64,000 nucleotides of DNA. It comes from Candidatus Thiodiazotropha endoloripes. GTDB lineage: Bacteria > Pseudomonadota > Gammaproteobacteria > Chromatiales > Chromatiaceae. Under the pieces are notes generated by a model, which was not told the origin of the DNA, did no database searches, and saw only the letters and a program-made list of their open reading frames with translations. Numbering within the stretch: position 1 is the first letter of the stretch; each line of letters opens with the position of its first letter. The translations under genes and the position numbers were made by a program. This document shows, in pieces, positions 8,781 to 59,032 of the stretch. The stretch is from the NCBI GenBank assembly GCA_001709035.1, contig LVKA01000019.1:62001-126000 (forward strand). The letters run 5' to 3'.

Positions 8781-9854
<1,074 letters not shown>

Positions 9855-9876
9855 TTGAATCCGTGTTAACAGGCCC
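9855..9876. repeat. Solo copy of the GGGCCTGTTAAC element end
   Basis: TTGAATCCGTGTTAACAGGCCC begins on the base after the hemB stop codon and matches the right terminal repeat of the two MITE copies at 53.1 and 58.7 kb at nearly every position. No partner end is visible nearby. Confidence 0.7.
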
Positions 9877-18297: not shown

Positions 18298-18795
18298 TGG
18301 TATCTATGACAAGTTTCACAAATGTAGAAAAGCCCCTATATGCCTTCAGACGCTTAATTTGATGATCGGCACTTTTTACAGCTACTTGAGAGATAATCGC
18401 CTGTGTCATCCCATAATGAGAACATGGGCTGATCGGCTGTCACTCCCATCAGCGTTGCAATCATCAAGAACAGTATGATTTATCACTATTAATCAGAAGT
18501 ATAGACGTCTTACCCGATCACTCGTATTCGACACAAGAGGCAACAAACCAGCGGCACTCCATTCATTGATTCCATACGGAGTCAGTCCCTTACAGCATCA
18601 AATTCAGTCGTCTCAAACCCTTAACTCAAAAGGGTTATGAAACCAATTGAAAACTGTTTTATTCAAAACAGAGCGCCATAAAGGGATCTTTCACCGGCGG
18701 AATAGGTGAAAAATGTCAAATTGCAGGATTTGTCTACAGGCCCAATATTCAGAATACCCACTGATTCCAGGGCCTGTTAAGACGAAATCAAACAC
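18298..18795. other. 498-base intergenic region
   Basis: No gene seen. It contains two short hairpins (AACCCTT/AAGGGTT at 18616-18636 and CTGTTTT/AAAACAG at 18654-18671) and, at its right end, a solo MITE-type terminal repeat. Confidence 0.5.
18770..18795. repeat. Solo copy of the GGGCCTGTTAAC element end
   Basis: GGGCCTGTTAAGACGAAATC matches the left terminal repeat of the MITE copies with a few changes. It ends right at the stop of the VPLPA-CTERM gene. Confidence 0.55.
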
Positions 18796-22510: not shown

Positions 22511-22540
22511 GGGCCTGTAAACCCTAATCCAACTGGCCCT
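22511..22540. repeat. Divergent solo MITE-type end
   Basis: GGGCCTGTAAACCCTAATCC, a variant of the terminal repeat, 55 bases upstream of prlC. The flanks AGGGCC...GGCCCT give a short symmetry. Confidence 0.45.
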
Positions 22541-31480: not shown

Positions 31481-32621
31481 AAAAGTTTTAATGGTGGACG
31501 ATGACCGTAACCTGCTCGACTCTTTTCGCCGACAATTCCGTAAACGTCTGAACCTTGAAACAGCCACCAGTGGAGCGGACGGCGTTCAGGCTGTAAGAGA
31601 TGGGGGCCCATTTGCCCTGGTGGTCTCCGACATGCAGATGCCGAATATGAATGGGGTGGAGTTTCTTTCCAAGGTAAGGGAGCAGTCACCCAATACGGTA
31701 CGCATCATGCTCACCGGTAACGCCAATCTGGATGTTGCCATCGACGCGGTGAATGATGGCAACATCTTCCGTTTTTTGAATAAGCCGGTAGAGACTGAGG
31801 TTCTCTATCAGACCGTCATAGAGGGTATCAAGCAGTATCGTCTGATCACCAATGAAAAGGTGTTGTTGAATAAAACCCTGAAAGGGGCGGTTGACCTACT
31901 GGCTGATGTTCTCAGCATGGTCAATCCAGATGCGTTCAGCCAATCTTCCCGCATCAAACATCATGTCAGAAGTATTGTCAGAAGCCTTTCACTGGAAGAT
32001 GGCTGGCACTACGATCTTGCCGGTATGCTTTGCCAACTGGGTTATGTCAGTCTACCCGACGATCTGATACACAAAGTCATGGCTGGTGATGAGTTAAGCA
32101 AGGCGGAAACGGAGCTCTATAACTCACATCCTGAGATGGGGAGCCGGCTGTTAAAACATATACCCCGTCTCGAAACGGTTGCCGCGATGATCGAGCATCA
32201 ACTCGACGATATCGGCAAGATTGAAATCCAGGGAAAACTGAACAATGAGGAAAAGGCAATACTGGGCGGGCAGATTTTAAAGGTCGCCATCAATTACGAC
32301 AAACTGCTCGACACTGGTAAATCGGAGGAAGAGGCGATCGAATTCCTTCGGGACAATCCTGAACACTTCGATCCGGCACTGGTGGAGATACTCATCCAGG
32401 GATCGATGAACCGCAAAGTCGAGATACTGAATCTGCCCCTTGATCAACTTGAGCCGGGGATGATCGTCGACCAACCGATCAAAACCAATGCCGGTGCTCT
32501 GCTGCTCGCCAAGGGGCAACCATTGAGTCAAGCCATGGTGTTCAAACTAAAGGTGGCTTATGATCGGGAGGTGCTGCCCGATACCAGTTTCAGAGTGTTC
32601 CGTATAACATCGATTGACTAG
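31464..32621 (+). CDS. Response regulator with degenerate HD-GYP domain
   Basis: A 385-residue protein. The ATG at 31464 has an AGGAG site 7 bases upstream and overlaps the HDOD gene by 17 bases. The receiver is complete (VDDD, D56 in VVSDMQMP, K107). The C-terminal part (about 140-300) has the HD-GYP fold, but the catalytic HD of LLHDIGK reads MLCQLGY (C190, Q191), and no HHE..DGxGYP motif is visible. It is therefore probably not a c-di-GMP phosphodiesterase but a phosphorylation-responsive adaptor. The stop codon TAG is formed at the junction with a MITE-type repeat end. Confidence 0.85.
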   Translation: MDKPPEKVLMVDDDRNLLDSFRRQFRKRLNLETATSGADGVQAVRDGGPFALVVSDMQMPNMNGVEFLSKVREQSPNTVRIMLTGNANLDVAIDAVNDGNIFRFLNKPVETEVLYQTVIEGIKQYRLITNEKVLLNKTLKGAVDLLADVLSMVNPDAFSQSSRIKHHVRSIVRSLSLEDGWHYDLAGMLCQLGYVSLPDDLIHKVMAGDELSKAETELYNSHPEMGSRLLKHIPRLETVAAMIEHQLDDIGKIEIQGKLNNEEKAILGGQILKVAINYDKLLDTGKSEEEAIEFLRDNPEHFDPALVEILIQGSMNRKVEILNLPLDQLEPGMIVDQPIKTNAGALLLAKGQPLSQAMVFKLKVAYDREVLPDTSFRVFRITSID

Positions 32622-32643
32622 GGCCTGTTAACGCTAATCCAAT
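32619..32643. repeat. Solo MITE-type end at the response regulator stop codon
   Basis: TAGGGCCTGTTAACGCTAAT matches the left end of the large copies at 53.1 and 58.7 kb. The TA plus the first G of the element make the TAG stop of the upstream gene. No partner end is seen within the next kilobase. Confidence 0.7.
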
Positions 32644-32654
32644 GCATTGACAAT

Positions 32655-33023
32655 TCAGCCAGTACCGGCCTGAAGATCAGACCATACCGCGTACTCATTG
32701 CCGTTTGGGTCGCAAAAATGGAAACGCCGGCCTCCTGGAAACCCAAACACCGGGACTTTGATTCGCCCACCGGCATCGACGATCTTCGCCTGAGTCTTCT
32801 CCAGATCACGGCTGTAGAAGACGATAAGAGCACTGCCTCGCTCAGCCGCTGTGGTCAGTTCAGAGTGGTAGAATCCGCCATCAAGACCCGCGTTGGAAAA
32901 GGCGCAGTAGTCCTCACCGTAATCGACAAAATCCCATCCGAAAACCTGTTTGAAAAATACCTTCACCGCTTCCAGATCCGAGGCGGGGAACTCAACATAA
33001 TCTATGGATTCGTGATATCTCAT
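32655..33023 (-). CDS. VOC-family protein
   Basis: A 122-residue vicinal oxygen chelate fold protein (glyoxalase/bleomycin-resistance type): IDYVEFPASDLEAVKVFFKQVFGWDF, then the FHFCDPNGNEYAVWSD end. The family binds metal and small molecules; the ligands and reaction cannot be told. It is convergent with the response regulator gene, with the solo repeat end between them. Related proteins of this small, single-domain form are often of unknown function. Confidence 0.85.
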   Translation of the reverse strand: MRYHESIDYVEFPASDLEAVKVFFKQVFGWDFVDYGEDYCAFSNAGLDGGFYHSELTTAAERGSALIVFYSRDLEKTQAKIVDAGGRIKVPVFGFPGGRRFHFCDPNGNEYAVWSDLQAGTG

Positions 33024-33232
33024 GCCAGCTAACCTGAAAGAGTTTTCAGGGCTTATCTGTGATAAAGCGACCGAGCAGCCAATCTATCAGTGTCGGCATT
33101 CATTCAGACCTAGACCCCCGAAAAAACAAGCGAAAAGTAACTCTCTGCAAACCGCAAATCTGTTTCTGAATTTAACTATAGAGCAAACCGGTGGCATGCT
33201 GATTGGATAATCGCTTACATCGGATCCGGTTA

Positions 33233-34246
33233 TTATCGATCAATTTCCGCCTCCGGACTCAACACAAGCTTACCGATCATGCCACCCTCCTCAATCAGCT
33301 GATGGGCCTCCACCACTTTCTCAAAAGGCAGAATTCGATTCACTGCGATTTTGAGACAGCCGCTATCGATCATCTCGGCACAATCGCTCAGAATGGCCAC
33401 CTGATTGATCCTTGCCTGGGGAAGATGGCGCAACATGGGAGTCAGCATCAACGTGAATCCTATGCGCAGATTCCGAGTACGCGCCTCTTTCCACTCGATG
33501 CCGTTTCCTGGATCGAGCAGCGTCACCAGATCGCCATAGTGGGCAGTGGCTGCAATGGAATCGCTGAACACCGGCCCGCCGACACTATCCAATACCATAT
33601 CGACACCCCGACCGTCTGTCAGTCGCATCACCTCATCGACAAACCCACCCTGCCTGTAGTTGATCACATCATCAGCACCCAGCTCCCTGACAAACTCCTG
33701 CTTTTCCTGACTACTGACCGTGGTCAAAACCCTGATCCCAGCCTGTTTTGCCAGCTGAATCGCCACATGACCCACACCACCAGCTCCGGCGTGTACCAAC
33801 AGAGACATACCATCGGTCATGCGTCCACGGCCGAATATCGCCTCCCAGGCGGTGATCAACACCAGGGGACCGGCCGCCGCATGGGCGAAATCCAGAGAAG
33901 CGGGTTTTCTGCAACAGACCGTCTCATCCAGTACAGCAAATTCAGCATAGTTACCCTGCAGCCCCCCCAAGCCGCCATTGCAGTACCAGACCTCGTCACC
34001 GGGCCGGAAATGGGTTACTGATTCACCACACTCAACAACGAGGCCGGCGCCATCGCAGCCAAGCACAGCAGGCAGGCCATCGTCAGTAAACACACCTCTC
34101 TGACGAAGTTTGGTATCGATCGGATTGACTCCGGCCGCCATAATTCTGATTTTGATCTCAGTTGGATTTTCGATCGCAGGCTCAGGGATCTCTTCAACTT
34201 TCAACACCTCCGGCTCTCCCAGCTCCCTCAACACCACTGCTCGCAT
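33233..34246 (-). CDS. Zinc-independent quinone oxidoreductase-like MDR enzyme
   Basis: A 337-residue medium-chain reductase. The N-terminal catalytic part has GVNPIDTKLRQR and the LGCDGAG stretch. The Rossmann loop is HAGAGGVGHVAIQLAKQAG, and LGADDVINYR is the usual NADPH-region pattern. It lacks the zinc-binding cysteine set, so it fits the NADPH:quinone oxidoreductase (zeta-crystallin) branch. The substrate is unknown. An AGGAGG site lies 5 bases before the ATG. It stands alone, close to other redox and stress genes. Confidence 0.88.
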   Translation of the reverse strand: MRAVVLRELGEPEVLKVEEIPEPAIENPTEIKIRIMAAGVNPIDTKLRQRGVFTDDGLPAVLGCDGAGLVVECGESVTHFRPGDEVWYCNGGLGGLQGNYAEFAVLDETVCCRKPASLDFAHAAAGPLVLITAWEAIFGRGRMTDGMSLLVHAGAGGVGHVAIQLAKQAGIRVLTTVSSQEKQEFVRELGADDVINYRQGGFVDEVMRLTDGRGVDMVLDSVGGPVFSDSIAATAHYGDLVTLLDPGNGIEWKEARTRNLRIGFTLMLTPMLRHLPQARINQVAILSDCAEMIDSGCLKIAVNRILPFEKVVEAHQLIEEGGMIGKLVLSPEAEIDR

Positions 34247-34402
34247 TGAATCCTCCTAATCGGTAATTTGTCCTCGATAGCAACAAACTAAATACCGATT
34301 TTATTTTTTGTAATTTGTTTGTATCCGATGGGTGCGTTCATATTCAGCTATGCATGAATATGTAATTATAGTTTTTCTGGCTGAAATAACTGTTCGCCAT
34401 GC

Positions 34403-34469
34403 TTAGGGCCTGTTTATGATAAAAGTTAAGGTAGTGGATTCATAGTTAATTAGTGTTAACAGGCTCTAA
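34403..34469. repeat. Short two-ended element of the MITE family
   Basis: TTAGGGCCTGTT at the left and AACAGGCTCTAA at the right are inverted (11 of 12 positions match), with 43 bases between. The right end stops one base before the uracil-DNA glycosylase ATG and carries the only purine-rich motif (AACAGG) at ribosome-site distance. Confidence 0.6.
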
Positions 34470-35079: not shown

Positions 35080-35380
35080 CGAAGCGATCAGCCGACAGGG
35101 TGTTCGCAGGCTATTTATTCGCCAGGCAGAGAGAAACAATTTACATCCAGTCAATTTTATTACATTGTGCAACTCTATTAACCCGGCGACCAAATAGTTC
35201 ACTTTCAGCCACAGTGAGCCTGGCTGCAGCGAGGCATCAAAACGCCGCTGTAGCACGCCTACTGCAAGTTTTGATAACGAAGTCTGCAGGCAGGCTCAAT
35301 GCGACCTGCCTTCATAAATCAGTTAGTTAGGGACTTCAAGCAGACCCTGTTAACGCTACTTAAACGACGAGGAAAATCCA
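35080..35380. other. 301-base intergenic region with dispersed repeat
   Basis: No gene seen. It contains the CCGGCGACCAAATAG repeat (35182-35257) and an ACCCTGTTAACGCT variant of the MITE end near 35343, 38 bases before the OsmC-family start. Confidence 0.5.
35182..35257. repeat. CCGGCGACCAAATAG dispersed repeat, long copy
   Basis: CCGGCGACCAAATAGTTCAC begins a stretch that recurs at 45708 (short) and at 62209 (long). The right half of this copy, GCTGCAGCG ... CGCTGTAGC, can fold as a hairpin with one G-T pair. Confidence 0.65.
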
Positions 35381-37083: not shown

Positions 37084-37118
37084 GGGCTTGTTAGCGCTAA
37101 TCCAATACGCCCTGTTGT
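37084..37118. repeat. Solo MITE-type end
   Basis: GGGCTTGTTAGCGCTAATCC and CAATACGCCCTG match the left 35 bases of the copy at 53096 with several changes. No gene abuts it. Confidence 0.55.
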
Positions 37119-37202
37119 GCCTGATCGACGGGCAGACAGTGCCTCTCATCAACCGGCACAACGGTTCGCAACACGGTCAGTTGCATTCACACAGCGGGAG
37201 AT

Positions 37203-44534: not shown

Positions 44535-44556
44535 GGGCCTGTTAACATGAATTCAA
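44535..44556. repeat. Solo MITE-type end encoding the C-terminus of the upstream gene
   Basis: GGGCCTGTTAACATGAATTC, then AA, matches the left end of the MITE copies. Read on the minus strand it encodes LNSC and the TAA stop of the gene at 44542. Confidence 0.65.
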
Positions 44557-45258
44557 TAAGAACCTTTTGTTGTGCCGGATCAACCGCACAAGCAGAACAA
44601 ACAGTATCATGCTCAAGCCCATTGCGCCGCCACCACCGTGATAGTGATCATCCCCATCACGATAACTGTCCTCAAGGGGGAGTGCCCGGAGGTCCCGGTC
44701 ATCATAAGGTCCGTACTCGACCAAAAAGGCGTCATTGTCAGCATCATACAACTCGATCAGGACATCATAATAACCACTTGGGTAACCATCCAATAGACGG
44801 GTGACAACCTCATAATCATCATCGGAATCGTCCCGATCAATCGGGAAGCTCTCGGTGGTGTAGTAGCGATTCCACGGGCCGCCTTCCAAGCTCAGATAGA
44901 GCTCCGCATAGACCCAGGCCCGGCCACTGATTACATCCGCATCAAAACTGACACTCAACCGATGGTAGTAGCCATCGTCATCATCGTCACGGCTGATTAC
45001 GGTCCGTGCATCAAAAATCGAAAAATCCGGATCGTGATAAGCACGCACATTGGAACGATTCAGCTGCTTCTGACCGCTACCGGTGACAACCATCGGTTGC
45101 TGGATATCGATCTCCGCCTGATCGAGCTGCGCTTTCCAATCCTGTTTGGCGACCGGACCTTCGACAGACTGGGTCAACCGCTCAACAGACTCATTCGCCT
45201 GCAACAAACAAGCTGGCAGCAACAGTGTCAAAGAAATCAATATCTGTGTCATCTTCAT
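44542..45258 (-). CDS. Choice-of-anchor H-like exported protein with C-terminal anchor
   Basis: A 238-residue protein with a signal peptide. The body matches my recollection of the choice-of-anchor H family: YYHRLSVSFDADV, WVYAELYLSLEGGPWNRYYTTESFPI, and GYPSGYYDVLIELYDADNDAFLVEYGPYDD. The C-terminus has GGGGAMGLSMILFVLLVRLI plus basic residues, a GlyGly-CTERM-like anchor. The last residues (LNSC) are encoded by a repeat end. A GGGAG site precedes the ATG. Family is known for anchored surface proteins; role unknown. Confidence 0.65.
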   Translation of the reverse strand: MKMTQILISLTLLLPACLLQANESVERLTQSVEGPVAKQDWKAQLDQAEIDIQQPMVVTGSGQKQLNRSNVRAYHDPDFSIFDARTVISRDDDDDGYYHRLSVSFDADVISGRAWVYAELYLSLEGGPWNRYYTTESFPIDRDDSDDDYEVVTRLLDGYPSGYYDVLIELYDADNDAFLVEYGPYDDRDLRALPLEDSYRDGDDHYHGGGGAMGLSMILFVLLVRLIRHNKRFLLNSC

Positions 45259-53093: not shown

Positions 53094-53380
53094 TAGGGCC
53101 TGTTAACACGAATCCAATACGTCCTGCTGGGGCTGTTTTTGTGCCCAGCAAGGCAGAATGAGCGTGGTGCCGTTATTCTACATGAGCGCATAATAATCCC
53201 GCTGGGCGCAAAAACAGGCCCAGCCCCCTCTCTCAAATTAATCTGTGGGGTTGCGCCTGAAAAAGCGCCACGAACCGTTGCTCGTCGCTCATTTGGAACA
53301 ACCAAACTACGCTCCTCGCGCCTTGATTGGCGCTTTTTCAGGCACAACAGGACAACTTGGATTCGTATTAACAGGCCCTA
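53094..53380. mobile_element. MITE copy A, ~283 bp with GGGCCTGTTAAC terminal repeats
   Basis: GGGCCTGTTAACACGAATCC at 53096 and the inverted GGATTCGTATTAACAGGCCC ending at 53378 form terminal repeats of about 22 bases, flanked by TA on both sides (possible target duplication). An internal inverted repeat (GCGCCTGAAAAAGCGCC against GGCGCTTTTTCAGGC) lies at about 53251-53342. No transposase gene. About three-quarters identical by eye to copy B at 58736, over the whole length. It sits between rsfS and the WYL regulator. The TA-flanking and TIR style resemble IS630/Tc1-type derived elements, which is inference. Confidence 0.85.
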
Positions 53381-53737
53381 TTTGGATTCCCGGGTCTGGC
53401 CGCTGTTGTTCACTTCATCCACAGACCAGAGCCGCTCCAGATGATAGAAATCCCTGACCTTCGGCAGCATCACATGCACCACCACACCATTCAGGTCGAC
53501 CAGCGCCCACTCACCATCTTCGACACCCTCGGTTCCCAATGGCATCTCACCGGCTTGCTTGGCTTTGAATTCGACACTTTGTGCAATCGACTTGACATGA
53601 CGATCCGAGGTGCCGCTGGCGACGATCATGATATCCGTGATACTGGTCTTGCCACGTACGTCCAGTACCACCACATCCTTCGCTTTCATGTCGTCGAGGA
53701 TCTCCAGGACGATATCTCTAAGTGCTTCTATCTGCAT
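53378..53737 (-). CDS. rsfS: Ribosome silencing factor RsfS
   Basis: A 119-residue RsfS/Iojap protein, which binds ribosomal protein L14 and blocks subunit joining in stationary phase. Conserved parts seen: VLDVRGKTSITDIMIVASGTSDRHVKSIA and GEWALVDLNGVVVHVMLPKVRDFYHLERLW. The C-terminal tail (SVDEVNNSGQTRESK) runs to a TAG stop whose TA is the MITE flank and G is the element's first base, so the original end may have been longer or different. Follows nadD on the minus strand. Confidence 0.95.
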   Translation of the reverse strand: MQIEALRDIVLEILDDMKAKDVVVLDVRGKTSITDIMIVASGTSDRHVKSIAQSVEFKAKQAGEMPLGTEGVEDGEWALVDLNGVVVHVMLPKVRDFYHLERLWSVDEVNNSGQTRESK

Positions 53738-53896
53738 TGAGTCTCATTTTGTTTGCTGTAACAGGCTGCGTCCATTTTATCGGGTCTTGCCAACAAGCAT
53801 AACCCATCATTAGAAATTATTTGTTGAATCACCATTTTTCGGGTTAAGAACAGAGCCAATCACAAGCATGATCTCTCACCGATATCGGGTAAGAAT

Positions 53897-54523
53897 TCAA
53901 TCCCGATAGAGCCCTTCAGCGTGAATAATCTGCAAAACAGCCTCTGGCAGCAGATATCTTGGGCTTTCATCCTGTTTGATCAGATTTCGGATCAGACTGG
54001 CTGAGATATCGAGCTGGGTAACAGTCTGGACTCGAATTCCCCCAGCCTTTATCAGGTTGAATTGACGCTCGGGCTGACTCTCATGCCTCTGCAGAAGCCC
54101 CCTTGCGGCCTCTGAGAGTTGTGACTCGCCTGGGCGTCTCATGACAACCAGATGGGCAAGCTGCAGTATTTCATCCGGTTTGTGCCAGTCGGGGAAACCA
54201 CTGAATGCATCCATACCCATCAGCAACAGCAGGGGCTGGTCGGGAAAATCGTGATGTAAATCGCGCAGCGTATCCACTGTGTAGGAGTCACCGGCACGCC
54301 TCAACTCCCGATCATCGGCGACAAAGCCGGGCTGTTCCGTAATGGCCGCCTCAACCATCCGCAGGCGCAGCTCGGTGGAGGCCTGGGGCTGATCCCGATG
54401 AACCGGACCATGCAGAGGAATGAACCTTACTTGCTTGAGGCCGACCGCCTGCATGACATCCAGTGCGGTGCGTAAATGGCCATTGTGTATCGGGTCAAAG
54501 GTGCCCCCCAGGATACCGATCAT
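53897..54523 (-). CDS. nadD: Nicotinate-nucleotide adenylyltransferase
   Basis: A 208-residue NadD that makes nicotinate adenine dinucleotide in NAD synthesis. The ATP-binding HIGH-like motif is GTFDPIHNGHL near the start, and the C-terminal ISASLIRNLI is the ISSTxIR-like motif. The ATG at 54523 gives the standard N-terminus (MIGILGGTFDPIH); a longer reading with 36 extra residues is not supported. Lies between proA and rsfS, the common gene order. Confidence 0.95.
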   Translation of the reverse strand: MIGILGGTFDPIHNGHLRTALDVMQAVGLKQVRFIPLHGPVHRDQPQASTELRLRMVEAAITEQPGFVADDRELRRAGDSYTVDTLRDLHHDFPDQPLLLLMGMDAFSGFPDWHKPDEILQLAHLVVMRRPGESQLSEAARGLLQRHESQPERQFNLIKAGGIRVQTVTQLDISASLIRNLIKQDESPRYLLPEAVLQIIHAEGLYRD

Positions 54524-54601
54524 TCTGGACCTAACGGGAGGGGCGCTTGGCTGCCCAGAGCTGCACCGCATCCATCGTGATGAGATTATCCGTGAATAAA
54601 C

Positions 54602-54687
54602 GCCAATCACCGCGAGTGGATGCAAAATCAAGCGCTAGCAAAAAAGTGCTTTGCGGCATATTGCGGTGATTGGCGTTCATTGGCGGT
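54602..54687. repeat. CGCCAATCACCGC inverted repeat region
   Basis: CGCCAATCACCGC at 54602-54614 and GCGGTGATTGGCG at 54664-54676 are perfect inverted copies. The right half, extended to GGCGTTCATTGGCGG, resembles the repeat at 24637. It lies in the 196-base gap between proA and nadD. A 60-codon reading frame crosses it (54531-54713, minus), but it looks non-coding. Confidence 0.55.
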
Positions 54688-54719
54688 TTCAATCTCCTAA
54701 GACCAAAGATCATTCGGGA

Positions 54720-55991
54720 CTAGCTGCGAATATGTCCGTCACCCAGCACGATATACTTCACCGAGGTCAGCCCCTCCAGGCCGACCGGTCCACGGGCATG
54801 AAACTTGTCTGTAGAGATACCGATTTCCGCACCCAGACCATACTCAAAGCCATCGGCGAAGCGGGTCGAGGCATTCACCATGACCGAACTGGAGTCCACT
54901 TCGGTGAGAAAACGTCTGGCGCGGGTGTAGTTCTCGGTAATAATCGCATCGGTATGCTGAGAACTGTGGGTATTGATATGATCAATCGCCTCAGCCAGCC
55001 CAGGCACGACCCGGATCGACAGGATGGGCGCCAGATATTCGGTGTCCCAATCCTCATCCGTTGCACTGGTGCAATCCTCAATCAGCTCGCAGCTGCGGGC
55101 GCAGCCACGCAGCTCAACCCCTTTCTCATCCAGCGCCGGAGCCAAACGGGCGAGGGCTTGCGCGGCAACATCCTCCGCAACCAGCAGAGTCTCCATAGTA
55201 TTGCAGGTGCCATAACGTTGGGTTTTGGCATTCATCGCCACGGCATAAGCTTTTTCCAGGTCAGCCTGATCGTCGATATAGACATGGCAGATGCCATCCA
55301 GATGCTTGATCACCGGCACCCGGGCATCCTGACTGATCCGCTCGATCAATCCCTTGCCTCCCCGGGGTATGATCACATCCACATAGTCCGGCATGGTGAT
55401 CATGGCGCCCACCGCCTGGCGATCTGTGGTGGCAACGACCTGAACAACCGCCTCCGGCAGACCCGCCTTGTTCAAACCGGCAGCGATACACTGGGCGATC
55501 GCCTGATTGGAATAGTAGGCCTCCGAGCCGCCTCTCAACACCGCTGCATTGCCCGATTTTAGGCAGAGCGCCGCCGCATCGGCGGTGACATTGGGACGCG
55601 ATTCATAGATGATCCCCACCACGCCCAGCGGGACTCTCATACGTCCGACCTGGATGCCACTGGGCAGATATTTCATATCAAAAATCTCGCCTACCGGGTC
55701 GGCCAGGGCCGCAATCTGGCGCACCCCTTCGATCATGCTGTCGATGCGTGCCGGGGTCAGTTCCAGACGATCGAGCAGAGCGCTGTCCAGGCCTTTCTCC
55801 CGACCCTTCTCCAGATCCAGACTGTTTTCACTCATCAGCCGCTCTCTGGCCTCGTCCAGCGCCTCGGCAATCGCTTCGAGTGCCTGGTTTTTCTGGGCTG
55901 TCGGTACACCGGCCAGTGTCCGCGAGGCCTGGCGGGCCTGCTGACCCAGCTCTTGCATGTATCCGGCGATATCGGAGATCTTGTCTAACAT
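54720..55991 (-). CDS. proA: Gamma-glutamyl phosphate reductase
   Basis: A 423-residue ProA that reduces gamma-glutamyl phosphate to glutamate semialdehyde in proline synthesis. The aldehyde dehydrogenase-fold core is seen: [30 protein letters not shown], and the catalytic cysteine in [13 protein letters not shown]. Length is normal. It leads proA-nadD-rsfS. Confidence 0.97.
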
Positions 55992-56225
55992 TGTTTAAAT
56001 GGTGCTCATCTGAAAATATTACGATTGTTTAACTTTACCAAACCCGAGCTGAAATGGCCCGGATTCCTGGCAGTTTGACCTGACATCTGCATCCAATCCC
56101 TGTTTTGACCGTAACTATTTTAAGGGTTTTATTTCATCGGCTTCAAAGTAAAAGGTTTAAAGTTAAACCCAACTCTACCGATCTAATAGGCAGGAACTCA
56201 CCGAACAGATAACGGTCCAGAAATA

Positions 56226-56750
56226 ATGAACAGACTCTTTTTAAGTTTAATCTTATTGATGGTTGCGAGCGGCCAGCTCTGGGCAGAGCCATCGCTGTTT
56301 GGCGTTCCGATGCATTCCAAGGGTGCCAACACCTTCTACATCTCCGGCAAGATCGGCAACATGGCGCCAACTGAATTCATGGTCGACACCGGCTCAAGCT
56401 ATATGACCATCAATGAGAACACACTGGCCGAACTGCAGGCAGTAGGCAACCCACGTTACCTGAGAGATCTGAAAGGGGTGCTTGCCAATGGCGCGGAAAT
56501 GTTGGTACCAGTCTATACCATCACCGATGTACTGATTGGCGAGAAGTGTCTTCTGGAAGAGGTTGAGGTGGCCGTTTTTCCCGGCAAAACCAGACAGATT
56601 CTTGGTCTGAGCGCACTCTTGAAAACAGCGCCCTTCACTTTCTCCGCCGAACCTCCACAACTGCAGTTGAGTAACTGCAATTTACTGGAGATGGCTACCG
56701 ACAGCCAACAACAGACACAGCTGGCCGCCGGTATATCATCCCCTAACTAG
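56226..56750 (+). CDS. Exported retropepsin-like aspartic protease (clan AA)
   Basis: A 174-residue protein with a signal peptide (cleaved near LWAEP). The active-site motif FMVDTGSSYMTI matches the retropepsin-like aspartic protease family (one aspartate per chain, so a dimer), and the second glycine motif reads ILGLSALLK. The family is a group of periplasmic or outer-face proteases of unknown substrate, TIGR02281-like. It converges on the EF-hand gene 26 bases away. Confidence 0.82.
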   Translation: MNRLFLSLILLMVASGQLWAEPSLFGVPMHSKGANTFYISGKIGNMAPTEFMVDTGSSYMTINENTLAELQAVGNPRYLRDLKGVLANGAEMLVPVYTITDVLIGEKCLLEEVEVAVFPGKTRQILGLSALLKTAPFTFSAEPPQLQLSNCNLLEMATDSQQQTQLAAGISSPN

Positions 56751-56776
56751 GGATACCATCTAAAAGCGGAGCCGGC

Positions 56777-57031
56777 TTATTTGGTCTCTGCAGGCATCGC
56801 TTTTGCTTCGAATGCACTGAATTCAGCTGCATCAACACTGCCGTCCTGATTGGCATCAGCAGCTTCCCAGCCTTTATAGAGTGCTTCATTAGCGGTGGCT
56901 TCTTCTGAAGAGATGCTGCCATCAGCATTGGTGTCCAATGCAGTGAATGCATCCTCACCGGCAACTGCAGCCGTAACAAATCCAGCTGTAACCAGTGCCA
57001 AAGCGGCAAGTTTAATGGTTTTCGTATACAT
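56777..57031 (-). CDS. Exported EF-hand protein 1
   Basis: An 84-residue protein with a signal peptide (cleaved after AVAGE region). Two EF-hand calcium loops are seen: DTNADGSISSEE and DANQDGSVDAAE. It should bind calcium in the periplasm. It is clearly paralogous to the next gene (57295), with the same EALYKxW linker. An AAGGAG site lies 7 bases before the ATG. Confidence 0.85.
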   Translation of the reverse strand: MYTKTIKLAALALVTAGFVTAAVAGEDAFTALDTNADGSISSEEATANEALYKGWEAADANQDGSVDAAEFSAFEAKAMPAETK

Positions 57032-57294
57032 TATGTTCTCCTTAACGAATTTTATGGTTATGCCCAGAGATCCCTATCTACAGCATCGATCGTCTGGTGC
57101 CCCCTATAAGACACCCCAGACAGAAGAAATGCGGTGATAGGAATCACAGTTCCACTAATTAAATTCCTTTTAGAAAATCAGGAAGTTGCTAATGGATCGG
57201 CAACTAATAACGCTATCAAGTCCCTGTGATTTACCAGCGACCAGACCATTCTGGCCACCGGTTTTCTACCCAAAACTCATTCAGAGTTGTTCAA

Positions 57295-57546
57295 TTATTT
57301 AGCCGCTGGTGCAGCCTCAAAAGCACTGAATTCAGCCGCGTCAACCTGGCCGTCAGCATTCGCGTCAACCTTGGCCCAATCCTTGTAAAGCGCTTCATCA
57401 GCAGTGGATTCTTCAGCTGAGATGTAGCCATCAGCATTCACATCCAGCTTGGTGAAGGCACCTTCGTCCGCCGCATTGGCCACTGCAAAAAAACCGGCTG
57501 CTGCCAAAGCTACTACACCTTTTTTAATCATCATGGTTTTCATCAT
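57295..57546 (-). CDS. Exported EF-hand protein 2
   Basis: An 83-residue paralogue of the 56777 protein with a signal peptide (cleaved after ANA). The calcium loops are DVNADGYISAEE and DANADGQVDAAE, and the same ADEALYKDWAKVD linker joins them. The ATG at 57546 is chosen because AGGAG sits just upstream; a second ATG follows three bases later. A gene duplication made the pair. Role unknown; both likely buffer or sense calcium in the envelope. Confidence 0.85.
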   Translation of the reverse strand: MMKTMMIKKGVVALAAAGFFAVANAADEGAFTKLDVNADGYISAEESTADEALYKDWAKVDANADGQVDAAEFSAFEAAPAAK

Positions 57547-57707
57547 CTTTCTCCTTTCAATGATTTGTTTTAAATGCAAAGCCCTCTGACTGAGGTCTCT
57601 GTAGGCGATAAGACAACGATGAGGAAAAAAATTGGGTGACAGAAGTCACAAATAAAAAGGAATAGCTTTCCCAGGCACTTAGTTACTAATTCAGGTTGTG
57701 CTCCCGA

Positions 57708-58721
57708 TCACAGGCAGGTCATTCCGGAAACCCCTTGTGCAACATTTTTCAAGGCCAGCCAGGGGTCTTCCGAATTCAGACCCTTGATCATACGATCAAC
57801 ATCTGAACACTGTATTAGTAATTTTCTCCAAGCGTTGGCCGAACCCCTGGAGAGCGCTTTACTTACCACAGGCTTACGTTTATCCCAAACCCGGTAGGCG
57901 GCCATCACCTGGTTGCTGTTACGCCCCTGTTCCAGCTCATTGGCCATTTCCGCCAGCGTGCGAATCTCACGACTCAGGGCCCACAAAACCACGGGCGCCG
58001 CTACACCCTCCGCCTTCAATGAAGACAACATTCTCAAACCCTTGGCTGTCTGCCCATTCATCAGGGTATCGAGCAGGCTGAACACATCGAAACGGGCACT
58101 GTCCGCAACAGCTTGCATCAACTGATCCTGTGTCACTACCCCTTCCCCCTGCAGCAGTAACAGCTTCTCGATCTCCTGGTTGGCGGCCAGCAGATTGCCT
58201 TCCACCCGATCCATCAGCATCTGTACAACCCCGGCTTCCGGGATCAATCCGGCCTGTCGCAGCCGTTGCTCGATCCACGGCATCAGCCGGTTGCCCTCCA
58301 CCGGCCAGACCTGTATGACCACACCCAGCTGATCGACCGCCTGCAGCCACTTGCTCTTCATCTGCGACTTTTCCAACTTCGGCAGGGTTATCAGCAACAA
58401 CGTATCTTCGGCTGGACGTTGACAGTATTCGATCAGCGCCTTGCCCCCCTCATTGCCGAGCTTGGCGCTGTTCAAGCGCAGCTCAAGCAGTCGCCTGTCA
58501 CCAAACAGGGAGAGACTCTCCGCCGCCTGATTGAGAGCGGACCAGTCGAAGCCACCAACCGGATCCAACACCTCTCTTTCACTGAATCCCTGCTGTCGTG
58601 CAGCCTGGCGTATCTGGTCAGCCGCCTCCATCATCTGCAGCGGCTCATCACCGCTGAGCAGATAGAGTGGCGCCAGATCACGTTTCAATTGGGCGCTGAG
58701 TTGGTCGTTACGGAGTCTCAT
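57708..58721 (-). CDS. holA: DNA polymerase III delta subunit
   Basis: A 337-residue HolA, the clamp-loader subunit that opens the beta clamp. The start MRLRNDQLSAQLKRDLAPLYLLSGDEPLQ and the GxEGNLLAANQEIEKLLLL stretch match the family. No Shine-Dalgarno site is visible before the ATG. A MITE starts 15 bases upstream and separates it from lptE, its usual upstream partner, so its promoter or translation signals may now come from the element. Confidence 0.94.
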   Translation of the reverse strand: MRLRNDQLSAQLKRDLAPLYLLSGDEPLQMMEAADQIRQAARQQGFSEREVLDPVGGFDWSALNQAAESLSLFGDRRLLELRLNSAKLGNEGGKALIEYCQRPAEDTLLLITLPKLEKSQMKSKWLQAVDQLGVVIQVWPVEGNRLMPWIEQRLRQAGLIPEAGVVQMLMDRVEGNLLAANQEIEKLLLLQGEGVVTQDQLMQAVADSARFDVFSLLDTLMNGQTAKGLRMLSSLKAEGVAAPVVLWALSREIRTLAEMANELEQGRNSNQVMAAYRVWDKRKPVVSKALSRGSANAWRKLLIQCSDVDRMIKGLNSEDPWLALKNVAQGVSGMTCL

Positions 58722-58735
58722 GAGGTTTGGTCAGA

Positions 58736-59020
58736 GGGCCTGTTATCACCAATCCAACACGCTCTGCTGGGTCGGTTTTTCTGCCCAGTAAGGCAGAGTG
58801 GGCGTGGTGTAGTTGATCTACATGAGCGATTGATAACGCCGCTGGGCGCTAAAACAGTCCCAGCCCCCTGTTTAAGATACCCATACTGGGGACTTGCGCC
58901 TGAAAAAGCACAACTCGGCGTTGCTCTTCGATCATTTGGAACAACCAAACCTCTCTCCTCGCGCCTTGATTGGCGCTTTTCAGGCGCAACTGGGTGTGTT
59001 GGATTCGTGTTAACAGGCCC
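58736..59020. mobile_element. MITE copy B, ~285 bp with GGGCCTGTTAAC-type terminal repeats
   Basis: GGGCCTGTTATCACCAATCC at the left and GGATTCGTGTTAACAGGCCC at the right (ending 59020) form the terminal repeats. The right side is flanked by TA, the left by GA. The internal layout matches copy A, with the GCGCCTGAAAAAGC ... GGCGCTTTTCAGGCGC inverted repeat at about 58899-58988. It sits between holA and lptE. Confidence 0.85.
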
Positions 59021-59032
59021 TAGCTGTGCGAT

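What the first reader, a model, noticed from the sequence alone, without database searches (positions are those of the whole stretch)
53094..59022. A GGGCCTGTTAAC-ended MITE family, two full copies plus many solo ends
Two ~284-bp non-coding copies (53096-53378 and 58736-59020) share terminal inverted repeats of ~22 bases, a shared internal inverted repeat and about three-quarters identity by eye. At least eight more end-like sequences lie at 9855, 12788, 18770, 22511, 32619, 35343, 37084 and 44535, and a 67-bp two-ended form at 34403. This is an active or recently active non-autonomous element family. TA at the flanks hints at an IS630/Tc1-type source.
Basis: partly seen in the sequence, partly recalled or inferred. 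Interest (0 to 1): 0.7.

Follow-up and report, generated by a model that had tools for sequence, protein, structure and literature searches.

The report
Fork-polar scars of a symbiont MITE
A clam-symbiont genome carries a family of small, hairpin-rich, gene-less mobile DNA insertions, and most of its lone ends look like roughly 29-base scars left when an insertion collapsed, with the surviving end usually the one the replication fork reaches last.

Summary
53096-53378 and 58736-59020 are copies of a hairpin-rich, non-coding element with at least 28 near-full-length copies in this genome and 224 matches to its 22-base end, against 0 for a reversed control. It also occurs across Candidatus Thiodiazotropha and in 11 of 61 sampled genera of its family. 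Target duplication: TA. The likely source type is IS5-family, not IS630/Tc1: an 834-835 bp IS in a congener shares 13 terminal bases.

The surprise is the "solo ends". Half (88 of 174) keep 28-31 bases, stopping where the inner GCCCT repeats the outer boundary of the opposite end. Full copies, partial collapses and scars occur at the same sites in different species, so I read scars as deletions between short direct repeats. Keeping the left or the right end is nearly equivalent by sequence, yet the fork-distal end is kept in 42 of 46 scars of one genome mapped by dnaA and dif and at 98 of 118 independent sites overall. Full copies show no bias (27 of 57). I infer replication slippage over hairpins; which nascent strand slips is unresolved.

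The parts
53096..53378 (+). full copy 1 of the element (283 bp)
53094..53095 (.). TA, left target duplication of copy 1
53379..53380 (.). TA, right target duplication of copy 1
53096..53124 (+). left 29-base end module of copy 1
   Evidence: module length from scars
53126..53224 (+). inner hairpin A of copy 1 (arms 53126-53149 and 53201-53224)
53250..53348 (+). inner hairpin B of copy 1 (arms 53250-53270 and 53328-53348)
53350..53378 (-). right 29-base end module of copy 1
58736..59020 (+). full copy 2 of the element (285 bp), between lptE and holA; flanks GA and TA
22511..22539 (+). 29-base scar ending GGCCC, followed by TA; absent from the three syntenic relatives
32621..32644 (+). one-ended scar; shared and decayed in G002, 72-bp two-ended form at this site in G008
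44535..44558 (+). old scar, remnants in four genomes; in G011 a full copy is nested in it
9855..9876 (-). one-ended scar (against the fork rule); partly shared with G002
18770..18791 (+). decayed end, shared with G002
37084..37124 (+). truncated copy, about 41 bases
35343..35364 (+). decayed end, resemblance shared by relatives

Best explanation
A non-autonomous IS5-type element (MITE) inserts at TA, mostly within (C/T)TA(G/A). It has two ~29-base end modules around two adjacent hairpins of about 100 nt. The last bases of each end module (GCCCT) repeat the outer boundary of the opposite end (GGCCCTA). During chromosome replication the hairpins fold in single-stranded template; the polymerase stalls at a hairpin foot and the nascent 3' end re-pairs with the distant copy of the repeat, deleting the interior and one end. 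What remains is a ~29-base scar, often still between TAs. Two mirror-image deletions are possible; fork direction picks one, so the kept end is the one the fork reaches last. Shown: the family; TA duplication; the repeats; full, partly collapsed and scar states at the same sites in different species; the polarity; that it does not follow flanking gene direction. Inferred: that slippage is the enzymology, and that the scars without a known full counterpart arose the same way. A polymerase that copies the kept end first and then meets the hairpin foot would be the lagging-strand one, but leading-strand slippage from the outer repeat gives the same product.
For: Solo ends stop at 28-31 nt of element in 88 of 174. 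Same-site states: full L019 against scar L158:11173, joined at GCCCT; 94/59/18 bp at one site and 283/208/about 8 bp at another; L077 and L094 with different endpoints at one site, L110 full against L039 scar. TA[29]TA against an empty TA: L186:15015 against G000, L226:3528 against G002. Polarity: G002 42 of 46 scars by dnaA and dif; G004 10 of 12; all sets by local GC skew 101 of 122 scars, 98 of 118 after merging shared sites. Controls: full-copy orientation 27 of 57. Both flanking genes against the fork: still 14 of 17 solo ends follow the rule. Inner repeat matching the outer one over 5 or more bases: 14 of 21 G000 scars against 6 of 56 ends of long copies. Polarity also in scars that are not the commonest unit (64 of 83) and in those without TA on the inner side (37 of 50). 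Published slippage model: PMC4134008, PMC6377680 (passages).
Against: Longer truncated copies lean the same way, 34 of 52 (G002 9 of 11), so the contrast with scars is modest (Fisher p 0.017). 21 of 122 scars break the rule, including exact ones at G002 C6:782538 and C6:1267106. For the commonest unit (TAGGCCC, 39 scars) I found no full copy at the same site. Outside G002 and G000 each set is small (G004 10 of 12, named 15 of 20, G008 3 of 4). Local GC skew of 8-20 kb stretches is a noisy proxy for fork direction. Nothing was measured in cells.
Confidence: 0.7

Rival explanations
1. The 29-bp unit (GGGCC...GGCCC between TAs) is itself mobile and is inserted by an IS5-type transposase with a fork-dependent orientation, as reported for Tn7/TnsE and IS200/IS605.
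For: The TAGGCCC unit recurs 39 times in G000 and G002 sets and 37 of 39 are polar. TA[29]TA sits against empty TA sites. Orientation bias by replication is known for other transposons (PMC5371812, passages).
Against: Scars of other sequence and scars without TA on the inner side are polar too (64 of 83; 37 of 50). Full copies and scars share sites. Full copies, moved by the same kind of enzyme, show no orientation bias (27 of 57). The unit has one intact end and only a 5-bp inverted match at the other side.
Confidence: 0.15
2. The ~29-base motif is a functional, selected polar sequence of the chromosome (like KOPS or Chi), and the MITE ends are derived from it or mimic it.
For: Strong polarity relative to origin and terminus.
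Against: Scars shared between species decay at least as fast as their flanks, some by further deletion; many are recent and species-specific; boundaries coincide with the mobile element's.
Confidence: 0.04
3. Solo ends are ordinary random decay of MITE copies.
For: Some are: 52 of 174 extend beyond 34 nt with varied endpoints, e.g. 37084 in the window.
Against: Sharp stop at 28-31 nt (88 of 174) and polarity of 101 of 122 scars (p about 1e-13).
Confidence: 0.07
4. Transcription of neighbouring genes, not replication, sets the polarity.
For: Genes tend to follow the fork, so the two are correlated.
Against: 14 of 17 solo ends between two genes that oppose the fork still keep the fork-distal end; 25 of 32 between two genes that follow it (longest-ORF gene calls).
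Confidence: 0.04

Closest known systems
IS5-family insertion sequences (NCBIfam NF033580 IS5_3; PF13340 + PF01609)
   Same: The IS found in G007 has a left end identical over 13 bases, CTA/TAG flanks and TA duplication.
   Different: The MITE shares only the ends; its interior is unrelated hairpins. That this IS moves it is not shown.
Bacterial MITEs such as QMITE2 of Coxiella (review PMC10969869, passages)
   Same: Small, non-coding, inverted ends; most copies shorter than full length (10 of 78 QMITE2 copies full length, as the review says).
   Different: An endpoint fixed by a direct repeat and fork polarity are not mentioned in the passages seen.
Terminal-only PATEs and IS605-type remnants of Haloquadratum (PMC3119063, passages)
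   Different: IS605-type elements without inverted ends; the passages seen mention no replichore polarity of remnants.
Hairpin-promoted replication slippage between direct repeats (PMC4134008, passages; Trinh & Sinden recalled, not read)
   Same: Repeat at a hairpin foot, deletion of one repeat and the intervening DNA.
   Different: In vitro or plasmid systems; here a genome-wide natural series with two competing mirror-image deletions.
Directional copy-choice deletions of mitochondrial DNA (PMC6377680, passages)
   Same: Deletion direction set by strand-specific replication (67% by unique deletions).
   Different: Large deletions in mitochondria, read from imperfect repeats rather than from which transposon end survives.
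Replication-oriented transposons: Tn7/TnsE, IS200/IS605 (PMC5371812, passages)
   Same: Orientation follows the fork.
   Different: There insertion is oriented; here full insertions are not (27 of 57), the remnants are.

Membership tests
Bacterial MITE | short, non-coding, multicopy, with terminal inverted repeats | tested here: met
   263-285 bp, at least 28 copies, inverted arms
Bacterial MITE | target duplication at insertion | tested here: met
   TA/TA flanks in 23 of 33 copies over 240 bp; nested insertion in G011 with TA duplication
IS5-derived MITE | ends shared with an autonomous IS5-family element | tested here: inconclusive
   13 identical bases at one end, 3 mismatches in 12 at the other, in an IS of G007 only; none in G000
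IS5-derived MITE | mobilised by that transposase | not testable with these tools
   needs an experiment
IS630/Tc1-derived MITE | ends shared with an IS630-family (DDE_3) element | tested here: not met
   PF13358 at 3 loci in 2 of 10 genomes, no pair of such ends
Replication-slippage scar | deletion between short direct repeats next to a hairpin | tested here: met
Replication-slippage scar | dependence on fork direction | tested here: met
   42 of 46 and 10 of 12 by dnaA/dif; 98 of 118 sites by skew
REP/REPIN | RAYT (Y1 HUH) transposase | not tested
   no search was made

The most novel reading that the evidence does not exclude
The commonest 29-bp unit is itself a transposable element, about the smallest imaginable, inserted at TA in one orientation relative to the fork by an IS5-type transposase that reads the inner GGCCC as a second end.
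Probability: 0.13. Interest if true: 0.75.

Novelty: new variant of a known kind. Interest (0 to 1): 0.55.

Why it matters
The element is a natural, nearly mirror-symmetric reporter: two almost equivalent deletions compete and fork direction decides. Copies in more than twenty genomes could give an evolutionary-scale record of strand-asymmetric hairpin slippage, which is otherwise studied with constructs and in mitochondria. Scar orientation might also help to read fork direction in draft genomes of this group, and the mechanism may explain why lone MITE ends are so common here.

Tried and rejected
IS630/Tc1 source: PF13358 loci lack the ends. Structured-RNA explanation: no Rfam match in the window at gathering thresholds. 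An autonomous element bounded by the same 22-mer: in the first 113 sequences only two outer-to-outer spacings exceeded 320 bp. One, window 32621-34466, holds a zinc-type dehydrogenase and a glyoxalase-like gene, not a transposase. The other, L098 1015-5788, holds two large ORFs that I listed but did not search. Transcription as cause of polarity. Selected motif. Which nascent strand slips: junction letters gave no clear answer.

Literature: searches listed nothing that I recognised as replichore-polar MITE remnants; only open-licence papers are held. Papers were seen as passages; the rest only as listings.

Sampling caveats. My first G000 set happened to take only minus-strand ends from contig C10, chosen after I had seen the listing; I then fetched the other unpaired C10 ends listed and more and recounted, so one search replaces for totals. 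Listings are capped, so the G000 set is a part of its ends. For G002 I took every exact unpaired end listed on C3, C6 and C7, not C9:882. One search leaves out the C7 scars of G002 (2 of 48), whose fork direction is unknown. One search uses 3 of the 4 stitched genomes as query and skips ends with 4 mismatches. Solo ends closer than 350 bases (inner side) or 30 bases (outer side) to a stretch edge were dropped before the counts, and duplicates were merged. One search scored 40 of 203 candidates and six per genome, so copy numbers are floors. Gene calls are longest-ORF approximations.
Full report
What is in the window. Copy 1 (53096-53378) and copy 2 (58736-59020) end in GGGCCTGTTAACACGAATCCAA-like inverted repeats and fold into two adjacent hairpins between the ends. 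Copy 1 lies between a WYL-domain regulator gene and rsfS; copy 2 between lptE and holA. The 12-mer end is over-represented in the window: 17 matches against 3.57 expected.

The family. In the window's own assembly (G000, 25 contigs, 4.87 Mb) 28 near-full-length copies were found; 40 of 203 candidates were scored, so this is a floor. The 22-base end with up to 3 mismatches occurs 89 times forward and 135 reverse; the reversed pattern 0 times. An exact search of the GTDB species genomes gave 82 stretches, in records titled Candidatus Thiodiazotropha, symbionts of lucinid clams, a Chromatiales MAG and a Sedimenticola MAG. G011 contig C9 has the length of JAEPDS010000009.1 of Thiodiazotropha sp. 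'RUGA', so I take the window to come from that genus (inference). In the wider family 16 of 116 sampled genomes and 11 of 61 genera match. The best pair of 28 copies is 98.1% identical and the mean over 211 compared pairs is 82.7%: fairly recent activity.

Source. Flanks are TA/TA in 23 of 33 copies over 240 bp, mostly as (C/T)TA...TA(G/A). PF01609 had no match in G000 and matched in 6 of 8 genomes. Two of its loci, both in G007, are an 834-835 bp insertion sequence with a left end identical over 13 bases, a right end with 3 mismatches in 12, CTA/TAG flanks and an IS5-family transposase in two frames. PF13340 matched in 1 of 10 genomes, the same G007, at 3 loci. IS630-type PF13358 matched in 2 of 10, without a pair of such ends. 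I file the element as a probable IS5-type MITE; that this IS moves it is not shown.

The solo ends. Aligned by their end, solo ends follow the element for 28-31 bases and then stop in 88 of 174 cases. The stop lies where the inner GCCCT of one end repeats the outer boundary GGCCCTA of the other. Of 98 scars of 27-34 nt, 70 have TA outside, 62 have TA just inside and 45 have both. A full copy in G000 and a 30-base scar in G002 occupy one site, joined at GCCCT. One site holds 94-, 59- and 18-bp forms in three species; another holds 283 bp, 208 bp and a remnant of about 8 bases. L077 and L094 share a site but differ in endpoint, and L110 (full) and L039 (scar) share another. A scar in G002 lies as TA[29]TA against a single TA in G000 (CA in G008), and one in G000 against a single TA in G002. 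Some scars ended in chance similarity to the flank instead, e.g. CAATTGACC at C18:141902. In G011 a full copy is nested in an old scar with TA duplication. So several solo ends are shown to be remnants of insertions that are longer elsewhere; I infer that most are.

Polarity. Keeping the left or the right end uses mirror-image repeats, so sequence alone hardly favours either. I located dnaA (G002 C6:1.215 Mb; G004 2.953 Mb; G000 C18:0.289 Mb) and a dif-like site (G002 C3:1.705 Mb; G004 0.752 Mb). The sign of GC skew changes at the same places in G002 and G000 C18. In G002, 42 of 46 scars keep the end reached last by the fork, longer truncated copies 9 of 11; in G004 10 of 12 scars and 3 of 4 truncated copies. 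By local GC skew: scars 101 of 122 (G002 43/48, G000 30/38, G004 10/12, named records 15/20, G008 3/4), 98 of 118 after merging shared sites, truncated copies 34 of 52. Thus truncated copies lean the same way more weakly (Fisher p 0.017). Orientation of full copies is unbiased, 27 of 57. Between two genes that oppose the fork 14 of 17 solo ends obey the rule, between two that follow it 25 of 32, convergent 33 of 37, divergent 12 of 17, inside a called gene 2 of 6. Within the window 5 of 6 counted ends obey; 9855 does not. Other exceptions include exact scars at G002 C6:782538 and C6:1267106 and L226:3528.

Mechanism. Published work describes a polymerase pausing in the first direct repeat at a hairpin foot and re-annealing at the second (PMC4134008, passages), and directional copy-choice deletions in mitochondria (PMC6377680, passages). 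Here the inner repeat lies at the hairpin foot. An Okazaki polymerase that copies the fork-distal end first, stalls at that foot and jumps to the far outer repeat yields the observed product. A leading-strand polymerase jumping from the outer repeat would yield it too. In G000 the inner repeat matches the outer one over 5 or more bases in 14 of 21 scars against 6 of 56 ends of long copies, as repeat-dependent slippage predicts; it could also mean that the TAGGCCC unit is a mobile subfamily. I give that rival 0.15, because other scars and scars without TA inside are polar too (64 of 83; 37 of 50).

Novelty. MITEs, palindrome slippage and terminal-only remnants are known. I recognised no description of replichore-polar MITE scars in searches of an open-licence library that lacks most subscription journals.

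Noticed in passing
44535-44558, 9855-9876, 53378-53380: Family pieces abut gene stop codons: the stop of the ORF 44542-45258 lies inside the scar, the ORF 8844-9854 stops at the base before the scar, and the rsfS stop codon is made of the element's last C plus the TA duplication.
   Followed up: partly
58736-59020: Copy 2 lies between lptE and holA, two genes on the same strand, so a strong hairpin would be transcribed if they share a message.
   Followed up: no
G000 contig C18, 288961-290280: dnaA lies on the window's own contig, about 163 kb beyond the window's right end, so forks should cross the window from right to left.
   Followed up: yes
L192 / L036 (G011), site of window 44535: A full copy is nested in an old scar of the same family, in its GTTAAC centre.
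   Followed up: partly
G127, G103, G130: Other genera carry only half of the element (query 153-283) or only part of hairpin B (query 181-236), so the hairpin modules may spread separately.
   Followed up: no
several loci: Short two-ended forms recur at the same lengths, 147 bp (7) and 94 bp (5), which suggests preferred internal deletions or mobile short forms.
   Followed up: no
54594-54690: By eye: an inverted pair AACGCCAATCACCGC ... GCGGTGATTGGCGTT near nadD, unlike this family; possibly another small repeat element.
   Followed up: no
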